Assembly: GCF_029309905.1 (NCBI RefSeq)
Contig: NZ_JARBJP010000006.1
Location: 140,569-204,568, forward strand
DNA length: 64,000 nucleotides
Source of the DNA: Brytella acorum
GTDB taxonomy: Bacteria; Pseudomonadota; Alphaproteobacteria; Acetobacterales; Acetobacteraceae
Direction: 5' to 3'
A program made the translations under genes and the position numbers. The number at the start of each line of letters is the position of its first letter. The stretch's first letter is position 1. Shown here piece by piece: positions 3-9,208 of the stretch. The notes under the pieces are model-generated. The model did no database searches. It was not told where the DNA came from and saw nothing but the letters and a program-made list of their open reading frames with translations.

Positions 3-338
3 GCGCTAATGGTCTGGTTTGGTTCTGCTCTTGCAATCCTTGTCGGATCCGTCAGTGAGCATTCGGAACTGTTTGAGCGTCTGTGGCATCCCATTACTTA
101 TCTGTTGATAGGATTTTCCGGTTTGGGGTTTCTGGTCGATGCGATGCCTGCCGCCGCGCAGAAGTACCTGGTGTTGATTCCCATGGTGAACTGTTCTGAA
201 ATCATCAGGGATGGTTACTTCGGATCACTGTTTGTCGCACATTATGATGTTTTATACGTAGTGATCTGGAATATTGTCTTGACATTTCTTGCCATGATCG
301 GCGTCAGGTCCGTGTCCCAAGGAACATCGCTGCAATGA
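3..338 (+). CDS. ABC-2 type polysaccharide export permease, C-terminal part
   Basis: The reading frame is open at the left edge, so only about the last 111 residues are visible. They contain three or four hydrophobic segments, one starting with the phrase WFGSALAILVGS and a last one near the C-terminus, as in Wzm/KpsM permeases. The stop codon overlaps the start of the next gene (ATGA at 335-338), and that gene encodes a Wzt/KpsT-like ATPase, so the two should form one exporter in the inner membrane. The role as exporter of a galactofuranose polysaccharide is inferred from galE, glf and GlfT2-like genes downstream. The N-terminal half and true start lie outside the window. Confidence 0.75.
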   Translation, partial: ALMVWFGSALAILVGSVSEHSELFERLWHPITYLLIGFSGLGFLVDAMPAAAQKYLVLIPMVNCSEIIRDGYFGSLFVAHYDVLYVVIWNIVLTFLAMIGVRSVSQGTSLQ

Positions 339-1846
339 TTGAATTTCAGGATGTCCGTAAGAATTATCCTGTCCGAAAGGGGCTTAACCGGGTGCTGAGA
401 GGCGCCGATCTGCTCATTCATCCGGGAGAAAAAGTAGGAATTCTCGGTCGCAATGGTGCTGGAAAGTCAACCACGATTCGCTTGCTAAGCGGCTCGGAAC
501 TTCCAACGTCGGGAACGGTCGATCGTAGGATGTCTGTTTCGTGGCCGTTAGCTTTCGGAGGTGCCTTTCAGGGAGCACTGACAGGGCGGGACAACGCGAA
601 GTGTATCTCACGCATCTACGGGCGGGATATCGAGGATACCCTCGACTTTGTGCAGGATTTTGCCGAGCTTGGTATTTATTTTGATGAACCCGTAAGAACT
701 TATTCGTCAGGAATGGCAGCGCGTCTGGCTTTCGCAATATCGATGAGTATCGAGTTCGATTGTTTTCTAATCGACGAAGTTGTTCATGTCGGAGATCATA
801 AATTCCACGAAAAATGTCAGGTTGAACTATTTGAAAAACGAGCGGATCGAGCGCGAGTCATCGTTTCGCATAGCGAGGATTTTGTCAGGGAGCATTGCGA
901 TCGTGCTTATGTGCTTAAGGATGGTTTATTCCGGCCGTTCGATGACGTTGATGAGGCGATAGATTTCCACATAAATTCTATGCACGAGAAGAACGACGCG
1001 AAAGATATCGACAGGACGATTGCTGCCATGCCATCGCATGATCCGAATTCTATCTATTCCCCCCATCCGTCAACAATACGTCGACTGGATGTACCGCAAG
1101 GCACTCAGATCGAGTTGCATCTTCCGCCGTCCTCGTTTTTTCCTGAATGCCAGCATCGGACCTGGCTTTACAGGCCCGCCGGATACGATGGGAGTAGCGC
1201 TCTGCCGCTTATAGTTTTGCAAGACGGTTGGTGGTTCAAGGCTGATGACGGCCCCTGGCAAACACCAGTCGTCCTGGACAATCTAATTGCTGATGGTGTC
1301 ATTCCGCCTGTTGCGGCGTTGTTGGTGGAGCCTGGAAAAGCAAACCATGAGCATGGACTTGCGAGCGAGCAGAGATCCTTTGAATACGACAGCCTGTCGG
1401 ACCGCTATGTTCGCTTTCTAGAGGAAGAGGTCTTTCCTGAGGCTCGCAAGCATATCACGATCGCCGATGACCCGGCAATGAGGGCAATCGGGGGTTTCGG
1501 TAGTGGTGGCATCTGTGCGTTCACGGCTGCCTGGCAGCGCCCTGACGTATTCGGACAGGTCTTTTCGTTTTGTGGGAGCTTTGTCGATATTCGCGGTGGT
1601 GGCTCGTATCCTGATAGCATCATGCAGACAGATCCGAAGCGCCTGCGTGTATTCCTGCAGGTTGGGATTAATGCGAGGCCTTCAGGTCGTTTTGACGGAT
1701 TGGACTGGCCATCCGGCAACCGCGCGATGGCGAGGGCTCTCGCGTTCAAAGGATATGATTATCAGCTCGTGACAGGGGAAGGGGATTTTTCCCACATTCA
1801 TGGGGTATCCATTCTTCCTGATGTTCTGAAATGGCTTTTGCGTTAA
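335..1846 (+). CDS. Polysaccharide ABC exporter ATPase fused to an esterase-like domain (Wzt-like, catalytic triad apparently lost)
   Basis: A 503-residue two-domain protein. Residues 1-220 are a Wzt/KpsT-type ATPase: Walker A GRNGAGKST at 38-46, signature YSSGM at 123-127, Walker B ending LIDE at 145-148, and the H-loop histidine at 179. Residues about 250-503 match the COG2382 enterochelin-esterase-like alpha/beta hydrolase fold, including GGICAFTAAW (391-400) and the terminal ILPDVLKWL. By comparison with family members as I know them, the nucleophile serine position is Gly389 (GFGSGG), the acid position is Ala447 and the histidine position is Phe485, so hydrolysis looks unlikely. In classical Wzt the C-terminal domain binds the glycan chain end, and a similar carrier role is inferred here. 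The gene is coupled to the permease by ATGA overlap. Confidence 0.85.
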   Translation: MIEFQDVRKNYPVRKGLNRVLRGADLLIHPGEKVGILGRNGAGKSTTIRLLSGSELPTSGTVDRRMSVSWPLAFGGAFQGALTGRDNAKCISRIYGRDIEDTLDFVQDFAELGIYFDEPVRTYSSGMAARLAFAISMSIEFDCFLIDEVVHVGDHKFHEKCQVELFEKRADRARVIVSHSEDFVREHCDRAYVLKDGLFRPFDDVDEAIDFHINSMHEKNDAKDIDRTIAAMPSHDPNSIYSPHPSTIRRLDVPQGTQIELHLPPSSFFPECQHRTWLYRPAGYDGSSALPLIVLQDGWWFKADDGPWQTPVVLDNLIADGVIPPVAALLVEPGKANHEHGLASEQRSFEYDSLSDRYVRFLEEEVFPEARKHITIADDPAMRAIGGFGSGGICAFTAAWQRPDVFGQVFSFCGSFVDIRGGGSYPDSIMQTDPKRLRVFLQVGINARPSGRFDGLDWPSGNRAMARALAFKGYDYQLVTGEGDFSHIHGVSILPDVLKWLLR

Positions 1847-2510
1847 ATCGCTTTCTTTTGCAGTTTGGAACGGAAAGTTTCCCCAAATACGTGTGATATG
1901 TCTCGAGATGATAACTGCCATTGGGGTGCCTCTGGATATCATCAGAGGTTTTATCTTCGGACTTTTACGATCTTGTGGCGACCGCCGTTTCGAATGGAGC
2001 GTCATGTGGTCAGCGAGCGGAAAGGTTTGGCGCTAACTCGTCGAATACGATTTGTTAACGCTCTTCAGTTGTTGGGAGCGGTAATGTCACCGTTAGCCTG
2101 CGGAGCAGGATCATGAGGCTGAATTGTGCGATCGGCGGCGACAGTGCTCAAGCCCATATCGATCGCATCGTCGTGTGCGATTTGCGACGCTGTGACAGCT
2201 TTATCATGGGTAATCTTGGATCGTGAAAAAGACTGGACATTTAGATCGCGCTCAGAGTCTCATCTGTCGCCGTAAAGTATCTCCCGTTCTACAGTCCTGA
2301 CACATCGGGCCTTAGAAGACCGTGATGGATGAATCAAACCGACGGGAGACGTAAGTTCCACCAGAGCGGCGATGGTGTGAGCTAAATTGAGAGGAAAGCA
2401 CTTCAGTGGGTTCTCTTCCACGATAGGAACATGGTATCCATTCTTCAATCAAGAAACTTCTGATGGTTTTTTTTTCTTATTCGTGGCGTCGGTCTTTCGG
2501 AGAGTTTTGA
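1847..2510. other. 664-bp stretch without a recognisable gene inside the galactofuran locus
   Basis: No frame here reads as a family I recognise. Short open frames exist: 1865-2116 plus, 2113-2226 plus (37 codons) and 2260-2448 minus. None has a convincing ribosome site or conserved motif. A T-run of nine sits at about 2467-2475, just ahead of galE. The stretch separates the exporter pair from galE and could be a promoter region or the debris of a lost gene. Confidence 0.4.
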
Positions 2511-3497
2511 ATGCGTTATCTTGTTACCGGTGGGGCAGGTTTCGTCGGTAGTCATGTTGTTCTTGCTCTGCTCGATGCGGGTCATGATGTTGTTGTCCTG
2601 GATAATCTGAGCACAGGGTATCGCAAGGCCGTTCCCGCTGGCGTAACCTTTCACAAGGTGGATCTTCTGGATTACGCTGCGACCTCGGCCGTGGTGGGGC
2701 AGGGAGCATGGGATGGCGTTCTGCATTTCGCGGCTCTTTCTCTGGTCGGCGACAGTATGCGTGATCCCTTTTACTATCTTCGTCAAAACTACCTGACAGC
2801 GCTGAATCTCGTACAGATATGCGTTGAGCATTCCGTCAAGAAGATCGTATTTTCTTCGACTGCTGCCCTTTTCGGTGGACCCGAACGGCTAGGCCCTATC
2901 CCGGAGACCGCACCCGTTCAGCCTGGATCCCCGTATGGTGAAAGCAAGTTCATGATCGAACGCGTGCTGAATTGGGCTGACGCGATCTATGGTCTCAGAA
3001 GTGCATGTCTGCGATATTTCAATGCTGCGGGGGCGGATCCTCAGGGCCGCGCAGGCGAAGATCACCGTCCTGAGACTCACTTGATTCCTCTGACCGTTGA
3101 CGCTGCGCTCGGCCGCCGATCCGCGCTGAAGTTGTTTGGTACAGATTATCCGACCCGAGACGGTTCCTGTATTCGTGACTATATTCATGTCACGGATCTT
3201 GCCGATGCTCATGTGAGGGCACTTGGTCAGATCGACCATCGCAGTGTCACATATAATATTGGCAATGGCCAAGGATATTCGAACCTCGAAGTCCTCCAAA
3301 GTGTCGAGCGGGTCAGTGGCCGAAAAGTTCCTTGGGAAGCTGCTCCCAGACGAGAAGGAGATCCTGCCTTTCTCGTGGCGGATTCCACAGCTCTAAAAAA
3401 TGATACGGGATGGGCGCCTCGCTTTGGGAGTATTGATAGTATCGTCGAGACAGCATTGCTGTGGCGTAAAAAAAACCCGAACGGTTACGAAGTGTAA
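2511..3497 (+). CDS. galE: UDP-glucose 4-epimerase
   Basis: 328 residues, typical length for GalE. It interconverts UDP-glucose and UDP-galactose in the cytoplasm, supplying the substrate of the mutase encoded next. The NAD-binding glycine motif TGGAGFVGSH is at residues 6-15. The catalytic Ser/Thr lies in FSSTAAL near 114-120, and the Tyr-x-x-x-Lys pair is Y142/K146 in PYGESK. The C-terminal substrate region RDYIHVTDLADAH is intact. The gene lies 34 bp upstream of glf on the same strand, consistent with one transcription unit for UDP-Galf synthesis. Extended SDR relatives such as UDP-glucuronate epimerase are possible, but the neighbour glf strongly favours GalE. Confidence 0.9.
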   Translation: MRYLVTGGAGFVGSHVVLALLDAGHDVVVLDNLSTGYRKAVPAGVTFHKVDLLDYAATSAVVGQGAWDGVLHFAALSLVGDSMRDPFYYLRQNYLTALNLVQICVEHSVKKIVFSSTAALFGGPERLGPIPETAPVQPGSPYGESKFMIERVLNWADAIYGLRSACLRYFNAAGADPQGRAGEDHRPETHLIPLTVDAALGRRSALKLFGTDYPTRDGSCIRDYIHVTDLADAHVRALGQIDHRSVTYNIGNGQGYSNLEVLQSVERVSGRKVPWEAAPRREGDPAFLVADSTALKNDTGWAPRFGSIDSIVETALLWRKKNPNGYEV

Positions 3498-6883: not shown

Positions 6884-8578
6884 GTGGATAAGCCGCCAGT
6901 CTGGTATATGCTCCAGCCATGGAGAGCCTCGGCTTCGTTACCTTTTTTTTCGAAGTCGCTCTTTCCTCTGGCCTGGGGTGGCTATGCACGATTTGAACAA
7001 CTTGGGTTGCAGATTCGGACGGGGATTCCCATTGTCGTCAAGGTGTTTCGACAATGGGGCCGGGAGGGACCAGAGCAGGTTTCCGAGCATGCTTTTGCGC
7101 CCGGACATTCAATTCTTGCTCTACCAACCCTGAGCGAGGCAGGCAGTCGACTGTTTTACAGTTTGCATGGGATTGATCAGGCGAGCCTGCCAGATAAGTC
7201 GGATGTTATTATAGACTGGGTTTGTGACAGGGCCCCGGAACATGCGGTGCATCTTGCCGTCGTTATATGCACGCGCGATCGGGAAATACAGATTCAGACG
7301 CTTCTGGATCAGATCGATACTCAACGTGAGGATCTGACGACATGCGTCATCGTCAATCAGGGCGCGACGGGTCTGCATGAGCGGTTGACAGTACGTGAGG
7401 CTCAAAAATATCTTTTTGTCGAACAGGAGAATTTTGGCGGAGCTGCGGGATTTACCCGTGGGATCATCGAAGCCCTAAATAATCCTCATATTACTCACGT
7501 CGTGCTTATGGATGACGATGTGGAAATCGACTCAGGTGTCTTGTGTCGTATCCGCTTTGCTCTGGCCTATATCCCCCCAGAAATTTGTATAGGCGGTGTG
7601 ATGGTGGACCGGGATTGCCGACAGCACCTCTTGTCTGTTGGACACGATTTCGATTCCCGTCGTGCCATGACGACTGATCGGCTCGTTCGCAGAGACTTGC
7701 ATCTGGAGGACGACATGGCTCGTTCCTTGTTGGAATATCCTCTGAATGTTGGGTTTTGTGGCTGGTGGTGTTTCTGCTTCCCTCGACAGGTCGTAGAAAC
7801 CTGCGGATTGCCGTTGCCTCTGTTTCTTCGGGGAGACGATGCGGAATATGGCTTGCGATTGAAGCGTGCCGGATTTCCAACAGTCATGTGGCCCGGTATT
7901 TACGTCGCCCACCCTAATCTACAGAATCAGACGCGACCTTGGCATAATTATTACGACCGTCGAAATGCCTTGATCTGCGCCCTTCTTGAGCGTGGTATCG
8001 TATCATCCAAGGCTATAATGCGGCTTATGCGAGGGGTATTCAACGCCTTAGCCTTGTACCGCTATGCTGAAGCACGCGCAAGTCTGGACGCATTGAGGGC
8101 ATATCTCGGAGGGGCAGACAGTCTGGAGTGCTGGAATGAAAACATACATCGCGCGCGTGTAAATGATGATGAGATGTCAAAAATTCTTCCAGCAGGGAAC
8201 CTTGTTTTTCTTGCTATTCATCGTACATCTTTTGTCAGGACAGTCGTTACTATATTGCGGGTTTGTAGGGATATTTTTTCACTTGGCTGGGGTAAAACCA
8301 CGATTTCCAATGATTCAATTTTGCAAATTGATGAGGCGAGTTGGATGGTTGGTACCGTTCAACGCCCTGAGAGAATTCAAGTTGTCAGCGGACGCAATGT
8401 AACTGAGTTAAGGAGGGATCCATCGCAAGCGCGTAATCTGTTTTTCAGCATGCTTCGTATCCTATGGTTCACTATGACACATCTTGCGCCAAAGCCTGAA
8501 GATTTTTTGAGGTTATCAACGCCAGTTTGGTGGAGCGCACGTCTGGAAACGATCAATAGGAAGTCAAAATCTAAATAA
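6884..8578 (+). CDS. Second GlfT2-like glycosyltransferase
   Basis: 564 residues, starting with GTG two bases after the stop of the preceding transferase. The start gives tight coupling and is the first in frame. It shares the same active-site order as its neighbour: MDDDVE with Asp210-212, GWW at 293-295, GDDAEYG with Asp318/319, and His343 in VAHP. It is shorter at both ends, so it may be an initiating or side-branching Galf transferase (compare GlfT1 and GlfT2 in mycobacteria). That division of labour is inference. The DNA around 8.15-8.6 kb is more AT-rich than the rest of the gene. Confidence 0.8.
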   Translation: MDKPPVWYMLQPWRASASLPFFSKSLFPLAWGGYARFEQLGLQIRTGIPIVVKVFRQWGREGPEQVSEHAFAPGHSILALPTLSEAGSRLFYSLHGIDQASLPDKSDVIIDWVCDRAPEHAVHLAVVICTRDREIQIQTLLDQIDTQREDLTTCVIVNQGATGLHERLTVREAQKYLFVEQENFGGAAGFTRGIIEALNNPHITHVVLMDDDVEIDSGVLCRIRFALAYIPPEICIGGVMVDRDCRQHLLSVGHDFDSRRAMTTDRLVRRDLHLEDDMARSLLEYPLNVGFCGWWCFCFPRQVVETCGLPLPLFLRGDDAEYGLRLKRAGFPTVMWPGIYVAHPNLQNQTRPWHNYYDRRNALICALLERGIVSSKAIMRLMRGVFNALALYRYAEARASLDALRAYLGGADSLECWNENIHRARVNDDEMSKILPAGNLVFLAIHRTSFVRTVVTILRVCRDIFSLGWGKTTISNDSILQIDEASWMVGTVQRPERIQVVSGRNVTELRRDPSQARNLFFSMLRILWFTMTHLAPKPEDFLRLSTPVWWSARLETINRKSKSK

Positions 8579-8813
8579 ATGTGGTCCGGAATGGAGGGAA
8601 GAAACGATCTTATTAATCGATTTCGTTCTCTTATTCTATATTTATGGTGAGATATGAAGTACCAACATAAACCATATAAATAACTTATAAATATATCGGA
8701 CGAACGAAGAACAACGGATTGGTTCCATTGCATCCTGATTTCGGGCACGCGGAGTGTCTGTTGAAGTGCTCCCTGAAAACCCGGCTAATTTGAATTGGAA
8801 TTTTCCACATATG

Positions 8814-8830
8814 ATCCCGTAAAGCGGGAT
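8814..8830. repeat. Small hairpin ATCCCG-N5-CGGGAT
   Basis: Six-base perfect arms at 8814-8819 and 8825-8830 with a five-base loop, 12 bp ahead of the IS3 orfA start. The same arms with another five-base loop occur at 15925-15941. It could lie near the left end of the IS element or shield the transposase from read-through. Confidence 0.4.
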
Positions 8831-8842
8831 GAGGAAAATTTC

Positions 8843-9208
8843 ATGAAGGCATCGAAGTCCACCGAGGTGCAGATCGCGTTTATTCTGAAGCAGGCGGATG
8901 GAGGAACACTTGTCGCCAGAGTTTGGCGGAAGGCAGGCATTTCGGATGCGACGTTCTACTACTGGTGGAAGAAATATGCCGGTCTGATGCCGTCCGAGAT
9001 GAAGCGGTTGCGGAAGTTTGAAGACGAAAACGCGAAGCTGAAACGGATCGTGCTGGACCTGTCGCTCGACAAGTTGAGGCGTGGCACGCAGGCCGAACCG
9101 ACCCAGCGGATCCGGGAGATCTGCGCAACCCGTGTGCGCTATGGCTATCACCGCGTTCGTATCCTGCTGCAACGAGATGGCCTATCTTCAACGTCGGGAA
9201 AACCGTGA
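8843..9208 (+). mobile_element. IS3-family transposase remnant (orfA fused to a short piece of orfB)
   Basis: The frame from ATG 8843 gives a typical IS3 orfA N-terminus: a STEVQIAFILKQ opening, then ISDATFYYWWKKYAGL in the helix-turn-helix, and a leucine-zipper-like ENAKLKRIVLDLSLDK. The sequence then jumps directly to an orfB-type phrase (RVRYGYHRVRILLQRDG), so the end of orfA and the start of orfB are missing. Nothing of the DDE catalytic core follows. This is an internally deleted, inactive relic. It lies exactly where the lower-GC polysaccharide locus gives way to GC-rich metabolic genes. Confidence 0.85.

What the first reader, a model, noticed from the sequence alone, without database searches (positions are those of the whole stretch)
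335..1846. Exporter ATPase fused to an esterase fold that has lost its catalytic triad
Wzt-type ATPases carry a C-terminal glycan-binding domain. Here that place holds a COG2382-like alpha/beta hydrolase whose nucleophile, acid and histidine positions read Gly389, Ala447 and Phe485. It may be a new kind of chain-recognition domain, or a relic of a chain-end deacylase. Mycobacteria also combine a galactan ABC exporter with esterase-fold enzymes of the Ag85 type, which makes the pairing suggestive.
Basis: partly seen in the sequence, partly recalled or inferred. Interest (0 to 1): 0.8.

Follow-up and report, generated by a model that had tools for sequence, protein, structure and literature searches.

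The report
Dead esterase built into capsule exporter
In a Gluconobacter-like bacterium, the motor protein of a capsule-sugar exporter ends in an esterase-type domain that has lost all three of the expected catalytic residues yet remains conserved and carries tryptophans found only in such fusions, so it likely works as a grip that holds the sugar chain for export rather than as an enzyme.

Summary
Window 335-1846 is one 503-residue gene: an intact ABC ATPase (1-218), a flexible linker and a CE1/Fes-type alpha/beta hydrolase domain whose nucleophile, acid and histidine slots read Gly389, Ala447, Phe485. The ATPase is KpsT-type, not Wzt-type: KpsM-, KpsE- and KpsD-like genes sit upstream. Thirteen further fusion clusters were found (Gluconobacter, Sphingobium, metagenomes), forming one clade in both domain trees. 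None of the 14 has the triad; the acid is lost in all, Ser in 10 (four losses on the tree as drawn, at least three). In 185 listed unfused relatives Ser and His are invariant and Asp is in 182; 23 of the 27 closest have an export-like N-terminus. The fused domain is under purifying selection (dN/dS 0.05, one species pair) and has fusion-only residues at strand ends around the old active site (W299 14/14, W300 13/14, C413 14/14; 0/185 unfused), which argues against a relic. Best reading: an esterase captured once onto a cytoplasmic capsule-export motor became a non-catalytic module that likely binds the probably Galf-containing chain; docking of synthesis enzymes is the main rival. No ligand was tested.

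The parts
3..338 (+). 3' end of the KpsM-like permease gene (complete gene begins upstream of the window, 265 aa); overlaps the ATPase start by 4 bases
   Evidence: full gene L009:16110-16907, ABC2_membrane 36.1 bits, NF050053 KpsM 93.9 bits, below its cut-off of 300
335..988 (+). KpsT-type ABC ATPase domain, residues 1-218, with intact Walker A, signature, Walker B and H-loop
989..1066 (+). flexible linker, residues 219-244, fast-evolving (dN/dS 0.26)
   Evidence: pLDDT below 50 at 221-234
1067..1843 (+). non-catalytic CE1/Fes-type alpha/beta hydrolase domain, residues 245-503
1229..1234 (+). W299-W300 in the loop after strand 292-296 (oxyanion-loop position of this fold, recalled); fusion-specific
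   Evidence: W299 14/14 fused, 0/185 non-fused; W300 13/14, 0/185; strand
1499..1501 (+). Gly389 in the nucleophile slot
1571..1573 (+). Cys413, fusion-specific invariant residue just after strand 408-412
   Evidence: 14/14 fused, 0/185 non-fused; strand
1673..1675 (+). Ala447 in the acid slot
   Evidence: Asp in 182 of 185 non-fused, 0 of 14 fused
1787..1789 (+). Phe485 in the histidine slot
   Evidence: His in 185 of 185 non-fused, 8 of 14 fused
2511..3497 (+). UDP-glucose 4-epimerase-like gene (galE; name recalled for this family)
   Evidence: Epimerase 188.3 bits
3532..4680 (+). UDP-galactopyranose mutase (glf)
   Evidence: GLF 258.6 bits
4773..6881 (+). GlfT2-like galactofuranosyltransferase
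   Evidence: matches solved galactofuranosyltransferase 9dtp (E 2.4e-25) and GlfT2 4fix (E 4.5e-24)
6884..8578 (+). second GT2 glycosyltransferase; weak matches to EpsD (46.1 bits, cut-off 370) and GlfT1 (42.6 bits, cut-off 330)

Best explanation
This is a KpsT-type capsule-export ATPase fused to an esterase-fold domain that lacks the catalytic triad and is kept by purifying selection, and the domain likely binds the newly made capsule chain in the cytoplasm and presents it to the exporter. Shown: one gene, intact ATPase motifs, a CE1/Fes-type fold in a confident model, triad absent in all 14 fusions found, one fusion clade in both domain trees, purifying selection on the domain, and fusion-only Trp and Cys residues at strand ends around the former active site. 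Inferred: an exported esterase was captured onto the cytoplasmic ATPase, catalysis was dropped (probably the acid first, since it is missing in all; then Ser repeatedly), and the emptied sugar-ester pocket was re-used as a binding site. The locus encodes glf and a GlfT2-like enzyme, so the likely ligand is a galactofuranose-containing chain or an acyl group on it. Held on a flexible linker, the domain would raise the local concentration of chain at the KpsT/KpsM gate, or gate ATP hydrolysis, as the unrelated jelly-roll domain of Wzt does for capped O antigen.
For: Fusion and fold. KpsT type and operon: 8tsi E 1.1e-51, an entry of the KpsMT-KpsE complex; KpsE TIGR01010 319.7 bits and KpsM-like 93.9 bits; Poly_export/SLBB KpsD-like; PF05159 genes at G000:C5. 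Triad. Single origin: esterase tree 100/100, ATPase tree 100/100. Ser lost four times on the tree as drawn, at least three if its open fork is regrouped. Selection: dN/dS esterase 0.051, galE 0.050, glf 0.026, ATPase 0.014, linker 0.26. New residues: W299 14/14, W300 13/14, C413 14/14, each 0/185 in non-fused. Free-standing relatives look exported: hydrophobic N-terminal stretch in 23 of 27, lipobox-like motif in 13 of 27. Galf genes. Precedents: the Wzt binding domain recruits the chain and modulates ATPase activity (passages of PMC9445017); alpha/beta-hydrolase members without a triad include cell adhesion proteins (passages of PMC5943944).
Against: No ligand evidence; the binding role is inference. 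Ordinary KpsMT exporters have no such domain, and KpsMT is reported to have limited specificity for chain structure, with the conserved Kdo-glycolipid suggested to mediate recognition (passages of PMC11041684). Gluconobacter sphaericus and Acidisoma plasmids carry unfused 215-aa KpsT-like proteins. Related ATPases carry TPR or GT90 extensions, which points to docking instead. Two of 14 fusions (P0004, P0007) still have both Ser and His, lacking only the acid. S486 and C413 are invariant and H373, H489 nearly so in the fusions, so unconventional chemistry is not excluded. Association with glf is shown in only two loci (window and G. oxydans). dS is near saturation (1.27-1.36), and dN/dS rests on one pair.
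Confidence: 0.42

Rival explanations
1. Docking platform: the dead esterase domain binds the synthesis enzymes (GlfT2-like or GT4 proteins) rather than sugar, coupling polymerisation to export.
For: Related alphaproteobacterial KpsT-like ATPases carry C-terminal TPR regions (P0109, P0116 by Pfam; the Sphingomonas taxi plasmid copy groups with them in the tree and has a 253-residue tail) or a GT90 glycosyltransferase domain (P0120) at the same place. TPR regions usually mediate protein contacts (recalled).
Against: The fusion-only tryptophans W299/W300 lie in a former active-site loop by secondary structure, which suits a pocket. No interaction data either way.
Confidence: 0.32
2. Small-ligand sensor: the pocket binds a soluble metabolite or acyl donor and gates the ATPase allosterically, like hormone receptors of the same fold (recalled).
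For: The pocket region carries invariant new residues and is tethered directly to the motor.
Against: I saw no gene in the locus that suggests such a ligand; simpler glycan readings exist.
Confidence: 0.13
3. Residual or unconventional catalysis, for example through a Ser-His dyad in some members or through Cys413 or Ser486.
For: P0004 and P0007 keep Ser and His; Cys413 and Ser486 are invariant and H373 and H489 nearly invariant in the fusions.
Against: The window protein has Gly, Ala and Phe in the three slots; Ser389 is absent in 10 of 14; Cys413 and Ser486 are not at the nucleophile elbow by secondary structure.
Confidence: 0.07
4. Decaying relic of a deacylase with no present function.
For: Triad residues lost repeatedly.
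Against: dN/dS 0.051, equal to galE; 14/14 invariant new residues. One shorter copy, P0022 (359 aa), keeps only part of the domain, in a metagenome contig.
Confidence: 0.04
5. Artefact: frameshift or misassembly joining two genes.
For: None.
Against: Same 503-aa frame in an independent G. oxydans assembly and both domains in 13 other protein clusters.
Confidence: 0.01

Closest known systems
KpsT, ATPase of ABC-dependent (group 2-type) capsule exporters
   Same: Best solved match is 8tsi (E 1.1e-51), deposited as KpsMT-KpsE; KpsM-, KpsE- and KpsD-like genes adjacent; KpsC/KpsS-family (PF05159, name recalled) genes in the genome
   Different: Of 12 distinct KpsT-like ATPases read from searched genomes and plasmids outside the fusion clade, 11 end within 44 residues of the ATPase and one has the TPR-type tail; this one has a 285-residue extension with a hydrolase fold. 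NCBIfam equivalog cut-offs are not reached
Wzt with C-terminal carbohydrate-binding domain (O-antigen exporters)
   Same: Extra C-terminal domain on a polysaccharide-export ATPase, possibly chain-binding
   Different: Wzt's domain is a jelly roll (passages); here an alpha/beta hydrolase. The ATPase is farther from Wzt (8dku, E 4.2e-33) than from KpsT
Fes enterochelin esterase and CE1 feruloyl/acetylxylan esterases (PF00756)
   Different: No Ser, Asp or His in the triad slots; fused to an ATPase that works in the cytoplasm
KpsT-like ATPases with TPR or GT90 C-terminal regions (sphingomonads, metagenomes)
   Same: Same ATPase subgroup with an added C-terminal part
   Different: Unrelated cargo domains; other places in the ATPase tree, though P0120 (GT90) is next to the fusion clade with moderate support, 84/81
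Antigen 85 mycolyltransferases
   Same: Same superfamily and a link to furanose glycans (recalled)
   Different: Exported active enzymes, not fused to an ATPase (recalled); not compared here

Membership tests
KpsT-type capsule exporter ATPase | ATPase domain closest to KpsT with intact nucleotide-binding motifs | tested here: met
KpsT-type capsule exporter ATPase | Encoded with KpsM, KpsE and KpsD/Wza-type partners | tested here: met
   L009 genes: Poly_export/SLBB; KpsE TIGR01010 319.7 bits (cut-off 437.5) and KpsM NF050053 93.9 bits (cut-off 300): best family clear, curated cut-offs not reached
KpsT-type capsule exporter ATPase | KpsC/KpsS-family primer enzymes in the genome | tested here: met
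   PF05159 over cut-off at G000:C5:165332-166075 and 166538-167458; that they serve this exporter is not shown
KpsT-type capsule exporter ATPase | Curated score cut-off of an NCBIfam exporter-ATPase model | tested here: not met
   best models TagH-type 121.9 bits (cut-off 538), galactan_ABC_ATP 103.6 (400), VexC 72.2 (313); the output showed 25 of 178 families
KpsT-type capsule exporter ATPase | Exports a Kdo-lipid-linked chain | not testable with these tools
   needs biochemistry
Wzt with carbohydrate-binding domain | C-terminal jelly-roll binding domain | tested here: not met
   C-terminal domain matches PF00756 and the Fes/CE1 fold
PF00756 esterase family (fold) | Profile match and alpha/beta hydrolase fold | tested here: met
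Active serine esterase | Ser-Asp/Glu-His triad | tested here: not met
   0 of 14 fusions have it; S and H 185/185, D 182/185 in non-fused
Exported CE1-like esterases (closest free-standing relatives) | N-terminal export signal | tested here: not met
   fusions start with the ATPase and have no strongly hydrophobic stretch at the N-terminus or linker; 23 of 27 free-standing relatives have one at the N-terminus (a simple hydropathy and motif test)
Antigen 85 mycolyltransferases | Mycolyl transfer and Ag85-specific sequence features | not tested
   no comparison made; not among the 50 fold matches shown, which excludes nothing

The most novel reading that the evidence does not exclude
A capsule exporter has turned a captured esterase into a chain receptor: a substrate-recognition domain on a KpsT motor, evolved from a glycan-ester enzyme by stripping the triad and placing tryptophans in the oxyanion loop, so that KpsMT-type export in these bacteria checks or holds its Galf-containing capsule before ATP hydrolysis.
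Probability: 0.33. Interest if true: 0.78.

Novelty: new variant of a known kind. Interest (0 to 1): 0.6.

Why it matters
How KpsMT exporters choose their chains is not settled; the shared lipid end is the favoured signal. A dedicated, selected, apparently non-catalytic domain on the motor would make chain recognition in this class directly testable with one isolated domain. It is also a clean natural case of enzyme-to-binder evolution: one fusion, an acid missing in every member, and three or four separate nucleophile losses.

Tried and rejected
Relic reading: disfavoured by dN/dS and new invariant residues. Artefact: rejected. Wzt membership: rejected. Long KpsT frames in G237 and G278 looked like fusions, but the extra length is open frame upstream of the ATPase; their C-tails are 2-3 residues.

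Hunting the Sphingobium loci to see whether glf sits beside those fusions failed: searches with P0007 in four families (10, 96, 390 and 298 genomes) gave no match, without a positive control, without knowing which family is which, and with only 3-15 candidates scored per genome in the last three, so they show nothing. A plasmid search (320 records with a match, 10 listed, 5 opened) found no record covering 80% of the fusion. The first AlphaFold model had a poor ATPase part; a deeper alignment gave 86.7 mean pLDDT but pTM 0.55, so domain placement is unknown. The acid and His slots could not be aligned residue by residue to a solved enzyme.

Literature: five searches for an esterase- or pseudoenzyme-fused capsule ATPase or for the Gluconobacter locus and two for background; listings and starts of abstracts seen. 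No listed title or abstract reports this fusion. The library is open-access only. Of four papers opened, passages found by term were seen: PMC11041684, PMC9445017, PMC3448643 (not relevant) and PMC5943944.

Full report

It is a KpsT-type exporter, not Wzt. The best solved match is 8tsi (E 1.1e-51), deposited with KpsMT-KpsE, ahead of Wzt 8dku (E 4.2e-33). Upstream on the same contig (L009) are a Poly_export/SLBB (KpsD/Wza-like) gene, a KpsE gene (TIGR01010, 319.7 bits, cut-off 437.5) and the KpsM-like permease (93.9 bits, cut-off 300). NCBIfam equivalog cut-offs are not reached, also not by the ATPase, so these are relatives, not curated equivalogs. Two PF05159 (KpsC/KpsS family, name recalled) frames lie at G000:C5. 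Downstream are galE, glf and a GlfT2-like transferase matching solved galactofuranosyltransferases, then a second GT2. Gluconobacter oxydans NBRC 14819 has the same gene order on a 14-kb contig (L030). The chain is therefore likely to contain galactofuranose; its structure is not known.

The triad is gone, and not only here. Position 389 aligns with the nucleophile of solved CE1 enzymes. I examined 185 non-fused relatives: all esterase-bearing rows of two lists capped at the best 120 (out of 2539 and 5061 proteins), leaving out the fragment P0022 and 15 ATPase-only proteins. Position 389 is Ser in 185, 447 is Asp in 182 and 485 is His in 185. Across 14 fusions Ser389 is kept in 4, Asp447 in 0, His485 in 8. 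No fusion has all three; P0004 and P0007 keep Ser and His. The acid and His slots rest on this conservation, since the HMMER alignments to solved enzymes stop before them. I see no conserved replacement triad: H274 is the only invariant His of the fused domains. But S486 and C413 are invariant and H373 and H489 are in 13 of 14, so unconventional chemistry is not formally excluded.

History. The fused hydrolase domains form one clade (100/100) nested among free-standing relatives, in a tree of 57 rows (14 fused, 27 free-standing, 16 of 64 planctomycete-type rows, long branches flagged). The fused ATPases form one clade (100/100; the row L115_0 there is the window itself). So the fusion most likely arose once. 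On the hydrolase tree Ser389 needs four losses as drawn and five state changes, three if the unresolved fork is regrouped. The free-standing relatives look exported: 23 of 27 have a hydrophobic N-terminal stretch, 13 of 27 a lipobox-like motif (a simple test, no signal-peptide predictor). The fused form starts with the ATPase and has no such stretch, so the domain likely changed compartment. Gluconobacter and Sphingobium belong to different orders (recalled), and the unfused KpsT copies of G. sphaericus, Acidisoma and G066 lie elsewhere in the ATPase tree; transfer between the orders is likely but not tested.

It is rare in what was searched. Of 200 family genomes 18 had some match to the hydrolase domain, the window's own at 645.9 bits and the next at 126.2. 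Of 385 class genomes 4 had a match at E up to 1e-30, only the own being fused. Of 105 fetched esterase loci examined (L010-L114; two gave no esterase frame), three frames hold both domains: two are the window itself and one is G. oxydans. Eight of 385 class genomes have a close KpsT-like ATPase at E up to 1e-60; in the seven besides the own, the protein ends 0-12 residues after the ATPase.

It does not look like a relic. Between the window and G. oxydans the hydrolase domain has dN/dS 0.051, like galE (0.050), with ATPase 0.014, glf 0.026 and linker 0.26 (dS 1.27-1.36 in the two domains, near saturation, one pair). Fusion-specific residues are fixed: W299 14/14, W300 13/14, C413 14/14, each 0/185 in non-fused relatives. 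By the model's secondary structure W299/W300 directly follow strand 292-296 and the invariant Asp-Gly, the oxyanion-loop position of this fold (recalled), and so sit at the same kind of strand end as 389, 447 and 485.

Mechanism. Best supported: a non-catalytic binding module tethered to the motor. CE1 enzymes act on esterified, often furanose-bearing, glycans (recalled); emptying the triad while adding tryptophans is what a sugar-binding pocket would need (inference). In Wzt an unrelated C-terminal domain recruits the chain and changes ATPase activity, and its W362L change abolishes LPS binding (passages of PMC9445017). Alpha/beta-hydrolase members without a triad include cell adhesion proteins (passages of PMC5943944). 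Against it: KpsMT is reported to have limited chain specificity (passages of PMC11041684), and sister KpsT-like ATPases carry TPR or GT90 extensions, which makes a docking platform the main rival. The steps 'binds glycan', 'presents it to the gate' and 'gates ATP hydrolysis' are inference.

Novelty. Exporter ATPases with C-terminal binding domains are known (Wzt), as are dead hydrolases that bind. A dead CE1/Fes-type domain on a KpsT motor was not seen in the listings of seven searches of an open-access library. New variant of a known kind.

Noticed in passing
window 1847-2510: The gap between the fused gene and galE is 664 bases here but 98 in G. oxydans (L030); a perfect 14-base direct repeat at 1804-1817 (inside the 3' end of the gene) and 2433-2446 spans it, suggesting an insertion or local duplication at the gene's 3' end.
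   Followed up: partly
window 8795-9208: Transposase-type helix-turn-helix ORF (HTH_Tnp_1, 48.4 bits) shortly after the last glycosyltransferase, possibly the right edge of the capsule locus.
   Followed up: partly
P0109, P0116, P0120; L132: KpsT-like ATPases with other C-terminal extensions: TPR regions (P0109, P0116; a similar tail on a Sphingomonas taxi plasmid) and a GT90 glycosyltransferase domain (P0120).
   Followed up: partly
P0114, P0115: KpsT-like ATPases with long N-terminal extensions (319 and 219 residues), the first with PBS_linker-like sequence.
   Followed up: no
L131 7001-9280 (Novosphingobium sp. P6W plasmid): An unfused 252-aa KpsT-like gene is followed at once by a GSCFA-domain protein gene.
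   Followed up: no
alignment A5; P0015: Several planctomycete/verrucomicrobial-type relatives of about 568 aa seem to hold two esterase domains in tandem: doubled consensus and two PF00756 stretches in P0015.
   Followed up: no
L009 11780-12385: Fatty-acid-hydroxylase-like gene (PF04116, 67 bits) inside the capsule locus, with a similar ORF in the same place in G. oxydans L030.
   Followed up: no
G000:C14:1331-1933 and G000:C1:558360-558938: Two further ATPases in the own genome that resemble polysaccharide-export ATPases (36% and 33% identity; 253 and 294 aa), with no large C-terminal domain.
   Followed up: partly
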